A model generated the notes under the pieces. The model had not been told where the DNA came from and searched no databases. It saw nothing but the letters and a program-made list of their open reading frames with translations. From an uncultured Granulosicoccaceae bacterium (lineage in GTDB: Bacteria > Pseudomonadota > Gammaproteobacteria > Granulosicoccales > Granulosicoccaceae), in NCBI GenBank assembly GCA_937922675.1, contig CALAJN010000001.1, positions 62,001-126,000 of the forward strand: DNA of 64,000 nt, in the 5' to 3' direction. Shown piece by piece: positions 9,168 to 10,419 of the stretch (within the stretch, counting starts at the first letter, position 1; every line of letters starts with the position of its first letter). Both the position numbers and the translations under genes were made by a program.

Positions 9168-9557
9168 TCATGGCTCTTCGGGCAGCATGATCAGGATGTC
9201 CTGATCTGTAGCCTCGAGCATCAAGCTTGTATCGTTGATGGCTGTCAGTACGGCGCCACCTGGAAGCTCATCACCGACCATGAAGCGTATGCCATCAGCG
9301 CGCGTGACTTGAACTGAAGGTGCGGTTTCTATCAAGGATATCTGTCCACCAAAGTGATCAGTTGCCTCATGGTCAGTGACAAACAACTGAATGCTGCTGT
9401 CACCGGATGTGCTGCTGTTGAGCGTCTGAACGCCGAGAACAACAAAGGCACCAACAGCCAGCAGCATGAAGGCCACATCAACGTACGCCGTCGATGCACG
9501 GCTCTCCTTGCGCGCTGCCTTGGTGCTGCTTGTCTGTTCAAGGTCAACTCGGTTCAT
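9168..9557 (-). CDS. Single-pass membrane protein with GspC HR-like periplasmic domain
   Basis: A 129-residue protein with a basic cytosolic start, one membrane segment (about residues 24-46, AYVDVAFMLLAVGAFVVLG) and a small C-terminal domain. The C-terminal pattern, GIRFMVGDELPGGAVLTAI followed by DTSLMLEATDQDILIMLP, resembles the homology region of type II secretion GspC (and PilP), in which a VGD turn precedes a strand and an inhibitory loop. The gene follows, 52 bases downstream, a protein with secretin N0/N1-like domains, the natural partner of a GspC homology region. This assignment rests on pattern only and is tentative. No other secretion genes are nearby. Confidence 0.5.
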   Translation of the reverse strand: MNRVDLEQTSSTKAARKESRASTAYVDVAFMLLAVGAFVVLGVQTLNSSTSGDSSIQLFVTDHEATDHFGGQISLIETAPSVQVTRADGIRFMVGDELPGGAVLTAINDTSLMLEATDQDILIMLPEEP

Positions 9558-9609
9558 TGTCGGTGCCTGTTCAATGTCGAATCACTGTGCACTTTCAATA
9601 CACCCGGGC

Positions 9610-10419
9610 TTACTCGGTGTAGTCGGTGTCGAATCCAGGGACATCGGTGATCGAGCGTATGACTCGTCGACCCACAGCTGGTTTCGATACAGGCGCCTTG
9701 TCAAGTACAACAGGCTGCAAGCTTGAGGCGGTAACAGGCTCGCTCAGGGCTTTCTCGCCTGCAAGATCCCCCGCTGCTGCCCGGCTTTTGGTGTCCGGCT
9801 GATCGGTTCGAGGCGTCTTGTTTTGAGGTTCTTCGGCTGCTGCCTCGGTCATGATTGTGTCGATGATCGAGCTGGCGCGTCGCGCAGTCAGTTGAACGAA
9901 AGCACGTGTGCCGGTCAATTCCAGTGTGCCGCGATTTTGCCGCACAAGCCCTTCATCAACCACTGGCTGTTCAACGAGCAGGTCGTACACTTTGGCAGCG
10001 ACATCACGCGACGACACGATCGTGGCTGAATGCCGTTTATTGACGTCATCAATCCACGCAACATTGCCATCGATGAACAACGCGAGACCGTGACTGCCGG
10101 CGATACGCCGCAGCTCGCCTTCGCTCGATCCGTTCAAGGTATCCGTGATGGTTGTGGTGTTGCTTGCTGCGCGGGAATCTATACGCACCTCAAGTCCGGC
10201 ATTGTTTGCCAGAGTTTCGAGCACCAGGGGAAGCGGTGCATCGATGACACGTATTCGGATCTGTGCATCGACTTCCGTTGTCTCGTTTGCCTCTGATGTC
10301 TCGCTCGTCGCTGGCGCCACAACAGCCGCGCCCAGCCACAGAGCAACAAGAGCCACGCACCTCACGGCGAGTGCACTTGCCTGCGACAAGAGTGTGTGTT
10401 GTGCGTCGGTCTCGAGCAC
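9610..10419 (-). CDS. Exported protein with secretin N0/N1-like domains, no secretin channel
   Basis: A 269-residue protein starting at GTG 10419 with a signal sequence or anchor (ALAVRCVALVALWLGAAVVAPAT). Residues about 50-110 look like the secretin N0/STN domain: RIRVIDAPLPLVLETLA then AGLEVRIDSRA, then a strand pair ending LALFIDGNVAWID, similar to the YDG-x-x-LYV segment of type III secretins (SctC). A second small domain with LELTGTRAFVQL (about 165-176) resembles the first KH-like N1 domain. The rest is a low-complexity linker rich in Thr, Pro and Ala. The long C-terminal beta-barrel domain of true secretins is absent. It is co-directional with the GspC-like gene downstream. Confidence 0.6.
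   Translation of the reverse strand: MLETDAQHTLLSQASALAVRCVALVALWLGAAVVAPATSETSEANETTEVDAQIRIRVIDAPLPLVLETLANNAGLEVRIDSRAASNTTTITDTLNGSSEGELRRIAGSHGLALFIDGNVAWIDDVNKRHSATIVSSRDVAAKVYDLLVEQPVVDEGLVRQNRGTLELTGTRAFVQLTARRASSIIDTIMTEAAAEEPQNKTPRTDQPDTKSRAAAGDLAGEKALSEPVTASSLQPVVLDKAPVSKPAVGRRVIRSITDVPGFDTDYTE

What the first reader, a model, noticed from the sequence alone, without database searches (positions are those of the whole stretch)
9168..10419. Orphan pair: secretin N0/N1-like protein plus GspC-HR-like protein
One gene has N0- and N1-like domains but no secretin channel; the next has a single membrane helix and a GspC/PilP-like HR pattern. In type II secretion the HR domain binds N0, so the two would be natural partners. 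Finding them alone, with no ATPase, pseudopilin or secretin channel nearby, suggests a small envelope complex that is not a classic secretion system.
Basis: partly seen in the sequence, partly recalled or inferred. Interest (0 to 1): 0.68.

Follow-up and report, generated by a model that had tools for sequence, protein, structure and literature searches.

The report
Channel-less remnant of type III secretion rings
Two small neighbouring genes in a marine Granulosicoccus bacterium encode only the two pieces by which the inner- and outer-membrane rings of a type III secretion machine normally grip each other, without any channel, motor or needle, which suggests that a piece of an injection machine was kept as a separate envelope-spanning clamp.

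Summary
The 269-aa protein (10419-9610, minus) is predicted to have an export helix, N0 and N1 domains and a long disordered tail, with no secretin channel. The 129-aa protein (9557-9168, minus) has one membrane helix and a C-terminal domain of HR fold. The best relatives are type III rather than type II. N0-N1 aligns end to end with EscC/InvG/MxiD (Z up to 13.7, 140 residues). The small protein matches the C-terminus of SctD (TIGR02500, E 4.9e-7) and branches with SctD, apart from GspC (100/100). The genus is Granulosicoccus. Of 27 genomes searched, 15 carry this kind of protein and 3 more a second channel-less SctC/SctD pair; in 11 of the 13 best-placed cases a third gene, a lipoprotein, precedes the pair. 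Full type III loci exist in 7 of 27 genomes, at other places; none was found in the window's genome. Among close species the genes are under purifying selection. I read the pair as a type-III-derived, non-secreting clamp: the SctD stub in the inner membrane holds the SctC N0 domain, whose tail reaches an outer-membrane partner. Origin is well supported; binding and function are inferred. The closest known case is rhizobial RhcC1.

The parts
9610..10419 (-). Gene C: channel-less SctC-like protein, 269 aa (GTG start as listed; in-frame TTG/GTG codons further in are possible starts)
10045..10263 (-). N0 domain, residues 53-125
   Evidence: AlphaFold2; VIA
9835..10032 (-). N1 domain (KH-like), residues 130-195
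9625..9648 (-). Conserved C-terminal motif TDVPGFDT (residues 258-265) after a disordered tail
   Evidence: pattern [TS]D[IV]PG[FY]xT in all 13 aligned members, searched for
9168..9557 (-). Gene D: SctD-like stub, 129 aa
9423..9488 (-). Single membrane helix, residues 24-45
9186..9389 (-). HR-fold domain corresponding to the SctD C-terminal domain, residues 57-124

Best explanation
The pair is a reduced, stand-alone derivative of the two ring proteins that join the membranes in a type III secretion system. Gene C keeps only the SctC N0 and N1 domains; gene D keeps only a membrane helix and the SctD C-terminal (HR-fold) domain. Proposed working: D sits in the inner membrane with its HR domain in the periplasm; C is exported; the HR domain joins N0 as in SctD-SctC and GspC/GspB-GspD; N0-N1 may form a ring; the flexible tail of C, with its conserved end motif, reaches an outer-membrane partner (in most relatives the co-encoded lipoprotein; in the window genome possibly one of three such lipoproteins encoded elsewhere). 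The result would be a non-secreting inner-to-outer-membrane clamp. Shown: domains by prediction, family relation, gene coupling, purifying selection among close relatives. Inferred: binding, ring, tail partner, function.
For: Structure: N0-N1 as in EscC/InvG/MxiD; HR. Family: TIGR02500 E 4.9e-7 and TIGR02516 E 2.3e-3 for the window pair; relatives up to 9.9e-8 and 9.8e-7. Profile-profile: C vs genus SctC 98.1%, E 6e-14, 172 columns, against GspD 62.2%, 80 columns; D vs SctD C-terminus 97.7%, E 1.7e-12, against GspC 95.3%, E 2e-8; three mismatched controls under 1%. D, SctD and second-type D rows are split from nine GspC rows at 100/100. The window genome has its own GspC/GspD and a PilQ locus, so D is not a missing GspC. 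Conservation: 15 of 27 genus genomes (with 34, 70, 81, 90). C-D gaps of -7 to 99 bp in 12 genomes; lipoprotein-C overlap of 1-4 bp in 6 of 10 trios. NG86 dN/dS: C 0.19-0.24, D 0.12-0.18, lipoprotein 0.08-0.10 among three close species. Lipoprotein paralogues 194 bp from sctT in one type III locus and close behind another two. SctD C-terminal strands join the N0 sheet in Shigella (PMC10019453, passages).
Against: No complex was modelled and no binding tested. HR matches are modest (Z up to 5.6; Foldseek E at best 0.15). The N0-N1 tree does not resolve: window and one sister row group near SctC and the other 11 C rows near GspD, with weak support (44/41) and long-branch warnings. The window and its sister lack the lipoprotein beside the pair and share only about 20% identity with the others. 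dS is saturated between window and its sister, so selection on the window copy itself was not measured. The SctC/SctD comparison set comes from the same genus, most GspD/GspC rows from other families, which favours the former.
Confidence: 0.6

Rival explanations
1. RhcC1-like adaptor: C and D dock an inner-membrane platform onto one of the cell's other secretins that lacks an N0 docking domain, for example the Tad-type CpaC, as proposed for rhizobial RhcC1 between SctD and RhcC2.
For: RhcC1 is a channel-less SctC N-terminal fragment described as a linker (PMC3459982, passages). The window genome has a CpaC-type secretin (named by eye) and D weakly matches the Rhizobium Y4yQ C-terminal family.
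Against: The pair is not near the CpaC-type gene (other contig). All 27 genus genomes have secretins, so co-occurrence is uninformative. In most relatives it is coupled to a lipoprotein instead.
Confidence: 0.2
2. Decaying relic of a lost type III system without present function.
For: Type III loci are patchy in the genus (7 of 27 genomes) and the window genome shows none.
Against: dN/dS well under 1 among close relatives, intact frames, operon overlaps, a C-terminal motif kept in 13 of 13 rows, 15 of 27 genomes, and the same reduction in a second lineage.
Confidence: 0.07
3. Type II-derived GspB/GspC-like scaffold that serves the cell's own GspD secretin.
For: HR fold and single membrane helix are those of GspB/OutB, which binds GspD N0 (PMC9239104, passages); the D profile hits GspC HR in the class search.
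Against: It would not explain the N0-N1 partner; profile and tree place D with SctD.
Confidence: 0.08

Closest known systems
RhcC1 of rhizobial type III systems (PMC3459982, passages read)
   Same: N-terminal SctC part kept without the channel
   Different: RhcC1 lies among the core genes of a type III locus with the Tad-like secretin RhcC2; here no export apparatus is near, and D is reduced too
SctC-SctD interface of injectisomes (EscC, InvG, MxiD; MxiG C-terminus)
   Same: N0-N1 fold and order; SctD C-terminal domain
   Different: no channel, no N3, no FHA, no SctD ring domains, no export apparatus
GspC/GspB HR with GspD N0; PilP with PilQ
   Same: HR fold on one membrane helix, N0 partner
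   Different: sequence nearer to SctD; GspB has a C-terminal peptidoglycan-binding extension that D lacks; no secretin partner gene
Needleless T3SS* of Myxococcus (PMC12075869, passages read)
   Same: type III parts reused without secretin or needle
   Different: that locus keeps the components for a sorting platform; here only the interface pieces remain
DotD and N0-bearing VirB7 (search listing; DotD also as a structure match)
   Same: stand-alone N0 domain in a channel-less protein
   Different: lipoproteins of type IV systems, recalled as without an SctC-type N1

Membership tests
SctC (type III secretin) | N0-N1 tandem of SctC type | tested here: met
SctC (type III secretin) | secretin channel domain PF00263 | tested here: not met
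   no PF00263 match; 65 disordered residues follow N1; genome hits lie elsewhere
SctD | C-terminal periplasmic domain (end of TIGR02500; Y4YQ_C) | tested here: met
   (below curated cut-offs on its own)
SctD | cytoplasmic FHA-like domain and periplasmic ring domains | tested here: not met
   only 23 residues before the helix and about a dozen between helix and HR
Type III secretion system | export apparatus and inner ring (SctV, SctJ) in the genome | tested here: not met
   one FHIPEP frame of 692 aa and one YscJ_FliF frame of 561 aa, about 12 kb apart on contig C14, read as flagellar FlhA/FliF
GspD/GspC (type II) | secretin channel; closest sequence match to GspD and GspC | tested here: not met
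   own gsp genes are separate
HR domain fold (GspC/PilP/GspB) | fold of two small beta sheets on a single membrane helix | tested here: met
   (Z 3.9-5.6 in ten rows)
RhcC1 | encoded within a type III locus with a separate Tad-like secretin | tested here: not met
   neighbours are apaH/apaG/ksgA/surA/lptD and a DMT-type transporter (names by eye from the translations)
DotD/VirB7-N0 | lipoprotein N-terminus | tested here: inconclusive
   no lipobox seen in the window protein by eye, but start codon uncertain; one relative (G006) has one by eye
N0-HR complex | physical binding of D to C | not testable with these tools

The most novel reading that the evidence does not exclude
A new kind of envelope bridge: at least two lineages of one genus separately cut the SctC-SctD pair down to the parts that touch, dropped the secretin channel, export gate and motor, coupled the result to a lipoprotein, and kept it as a non-secreting clamp between the two membranes, even in cells with no type III system. 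The [IV]PGF peptide found at the mature N-terminus of the genus' full SctC has a counterpart at the C-terminal end of C, as if a docking peptide had changed ends.
Probability: 0.35. Interest if true: 0.75.

Novelty: new variant of a known kind. Interest (0 to 1): 0.6.

Why it matters
Secretion machines are usually seen as gaining parts. Here the type III envelope interface appears on its own, in species with and without an injectisome, and in two differently cut versions. That gives a minimal natural system to ask what SctC N0 and SctD C-terminal domains do alone, supports a common HR-type module in the partners of type II, type III and type IV pilus secretins, and points to undescribed type III systems in Granulosicoccus (no paper in the held library has both terms).

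Tried and rejected
Type II assignment: considered first, rejected as the nearest family because SctC and SctD profiles score higher and the genome has its own gspC-gspD.

Missing GspC or PilP of the cell: rejected; a GspC gene precedes gspD (L121, T2SSC E 2.9e-24) and a small lipoprotein gene read by eye as pilP precedes pilQ (L122).

Single-sequence searches against the PDB led nowhere: no hit for C, one irrelevant hit for D. The first genome-contig scan with the window protein found no relative.

OmpA-like C-terminus of the lipoprotein: looked OmpA-like by eye, but profile-profile with genuine OmpA-type neighbours gave 4%, and Pfam OmpA only E 0.0021 on one paralogue, below its cut-off. Left unproven. 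The N-terminal part weakly matches conjugation lipoprotein TrbH (E 1.4e-5 and 6.7e-4).

Tree of N0-N1: unresolved, with long-branch warnings. It neither supports nor excludes one origin of all C rows.

Search of 369 class genomes with TIGR02516: matched nearly all secretins by the channel domain, none over the cut-off, so it gave no outgroup SctC set. One strong hit (L171) was read but not used.

Class search with A1: 29 of 369 genomes hit, 3 of them Granulosicoccus. Of the other 26 I read five: one GspD, one other secretin, two short proteins (227 and 246 aa) with a lone N0-like stretch and one chance-like hit. Class search with A2: 20 of 369, 3 of them Granulosicoccus. Eight of the other loci were read: seven show a gspC frame followed by gspD; in L120 the GspC frame was not resolved.

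I found no evidence for one fixed wider operon: the window and its sister have the pair after apaH, the others elsewhere.

Full report
WHAT IS THERE. Two minus-strand genes, C (10419-9610, 269 aa) and D (9557-9168, 129 aa), lie 52 bp apart between apaH-apaG-ksgA-pdxA-surA-lptD on one side and a convergent transporter gene on the other (names by eye from the translations). That identification is an inference.

DOMAINS. AlphaFold2 with 11 rows gives C an N-terminal helix (7-30), N0 (53-125), N1 (130-195) and a disordered tail from 205. Foldseek's best PDB match is EscC (E 6.3e-7), then InvG and MxiD. VIA gives EscC Z 13.7 over 140 residues, rmsd 3.6; most type II rows cover N0 only, or both domains with large rmsd. 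D has a helix 24-45 and a beta domain 57-124. Its ten best VIA rows are all HR domains (GspC 3OSS Z 5.6 over 61 residues, PulC 5.1, PilP 4.9, LspC 4.8, GspB 4.7), against 3.4 for the first unrelated row. By the tool's own note such Z values are middling; the weight lies in all ten being HR. Foldseek alone gave no E under 0.15.

FAMILY. Against NCBIfam the window pair hits TIGR02500 (SctD) at E 4.9e-7, over its last positions, and TIGR02516 (SctC) at E 2.3e-3, over its first; relatives reach 9.9e-8 and 9.8e-7. All are under the curated cut-offs, as expected for fragments. A profile of 13 C proteins finds EscC first in the PDB (E 0.013), then GspD and InvG; the D profile gives GspC (LspC) second, at E 1.1. 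Profile-profile comparison favours type III for both genes: C with eight genus SctC N-termini 98.1%, E 6.4e-14, 172 columns, against nine GspD 62.2%, E 7.5e-5, 80 columns; D with eight SctD C-termini 97.7%, E 1.7e-12, against nine GspC 95.3%, E 2.1e-8. Three mismatched controls gave 0.1-0.7%. In the HR tree, all D, second-type D and SctD rows are split from GspC at 100/100 (the bootstrap had not fully settled). The N0-N1 tree is unresolved.

DISTRIBUTION. In 27 same-genus genomes, 13 have a strong C match (E under 1e-60). G008 adds a contig-edge tail followed by D, and G022 a 580-aa protein with two N0-like stretches, one N1-like stretch, a long repeat-rich tail and the end VDQIPGFY, with a convergent D-like gene of 208 aa: 15 of 27. 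Three more (G002, G040, G021) have a second type: a channel-less SctC-like protein with N0-like and N3-like parts (Secretin_N E 4.8e-9 in G002) and an SctD-like protein with an N-terminal cytoplasmic part, one helix and the same C-terminal domain (Y4YQ_C E 2.1e-7 in G002), without the ring part. Full type III loci, with SctC over 650 aa and SctD over 300 aa side by side or close, occur in 7 of 27 (G015 twice, G016 of another kind, G019, G020, G021, G022 twice, G023). One of them (G023) was checked by NCBIfam for SctC, D, V, N and J. First-type C and a full type III locus meet in 4 genomes (G016, G019, G022, G023); 11 of 15 have C without a full-length SctD hit. In G000 itself the only FHIPEP and YscJ_FliF frames are of FlhA and FliF size. 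Outside the genus no relative of the pair was found in genome contigs; that scan used one pattern, the C-terminal motif, so it is narrow. Searches of 369 class genomes gave only weak hits, which, where read, were mostly secretin N0 or GspC.

THE THIRD GENE. In 10 of the 12 genomes laid out a lipoprotein gene (about 340-390 aa) stands directly before C, overlapping it by 1-4 bp in 6 of the 10; a thirteenth genome (G007) shows the same on split contigs. The window and G003 lack it there, but the window genome has three related frames elsewhere. The family is multi-copy: 26 of 27 genomes match. Paralogues lie 194 bp from sctT in one G015 locus, about 0.8 kb behind the type III block of the other, about 1.1 kb behind sctT in G020, 6.5 kb away in G021 and 12 kb in G023, and about 5 and 4 kb from the second-type pairs of G002 and G021. 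I take this as a link to type III parts; its molecular role is not shown.

SELECTION. Nei-Gojobori counts among G012, G018 and G041 give dN/dS of 0.19-0.24 (C), 0.12-0.18 (D) and 0.08-0.10 (lipoprotein), ratios taken from dN and dS. Between window and G003 the synonymous sites are saturated, so the window copy itself could not be judged.

MECHANISM. In Shigella two of three SctD C-terminal domains form a three-stranded sheet that joins the N0 sheet of SctC (PMC10019453, passages); GspB HR binds GspD N0 (PMC9239104, passages). D's model ends in three strands (103-107, 111-116, 119-124). I therefore propose that D holds C at the inner membrane through HR-N0. C's tail ends in [TS]D[IV]PG[FY]xT in 13 of 13 rows, which I take for a docking peptide. 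A related pattern [DEQ][IV]P[GNS][FYL] stands at the predicted mature N-terminus of 7 of 8 genus SctC (by eye); the pattern occurs 24 times in 198,080 residues of held frames, these cases included. This parallel was noticed after the fact and may be chance.

COMPARISON. RhcC1 of rhizobia is the nearest published case: the N-terminal part of SctC kept without channel, proposed as a linker between SctD and a Tad-type secretin (PMC3459982, passages). The present pair differs by lying outside any type III locus, by the reduced SctD, and by occurring in genomes without a detected type III system. Paper searches with the terms showed no description of this pair; only titles, abstract starts and the passages named were seen.

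VERDICT. A real, conserved, type-III-derived pair; origin likely, function open.

Noticed in passing
L151 8640-19823, L152 1-6693 (G023); also L155, L157, L158-L159, L160, L161, L164, L165, L166: Type III secretion loci in 7 of 27 Granulosicoccus genomes (two each in G015 and G022), G016 of another kind; no paper in the held library has both Granulosicoccus and type III secretion.
   Followed up: partly
L153 13796-15606, L154 2727-4537, L170 9558-11227: A second, differently cut channel-less SctC/SctD pair (N0 plus N3-like; cytoplasmic part plus helix plus C-terminal domain) in G002, G040 and G021.
   Followed up: partly
L163 9055-10797 and 8255-8881: G022 has a 580-aa protein with two N0-like stretches and an N1-like stretch, a long repetitive acidic tail and the end VDQIPGFY, beside a convergent D-like gene.
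   Followed up: no
L020 8560-9585, L055 8325-10669, L157 246-1358 and others: Multi-copy lipoprotein family in 26 of 27 genus genomes, weakly TrbH-like at the N-terminus and possibly OmpA-like at the C-terminus, often near type III genes.
   Followed up: partly
SctC N-termini (L151, L155, L157, L158, L160, L161, L164) and C protein C-termini: Similar [DEQ][IV]P[GNS][FYL] peptide at the mature start of full SctC and at the very end of the channel-less C proteins.
   Followed up: partly
L084 1444-2127, L095 1003-1743: Short secreted-looking proteins (227 and 246 aa) with a lone N0/STN-like stretch in two other gammaproteobacterial families.
   Followed up: no
L062 3309-4794 and the same place in L019, L020, L022, L024, L067, L068: Two tandem OmpA-type genes and a GTPase-like gene recur near the lipoprotein-C-D trio in several species, not near the window pair.
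   Followed up: no
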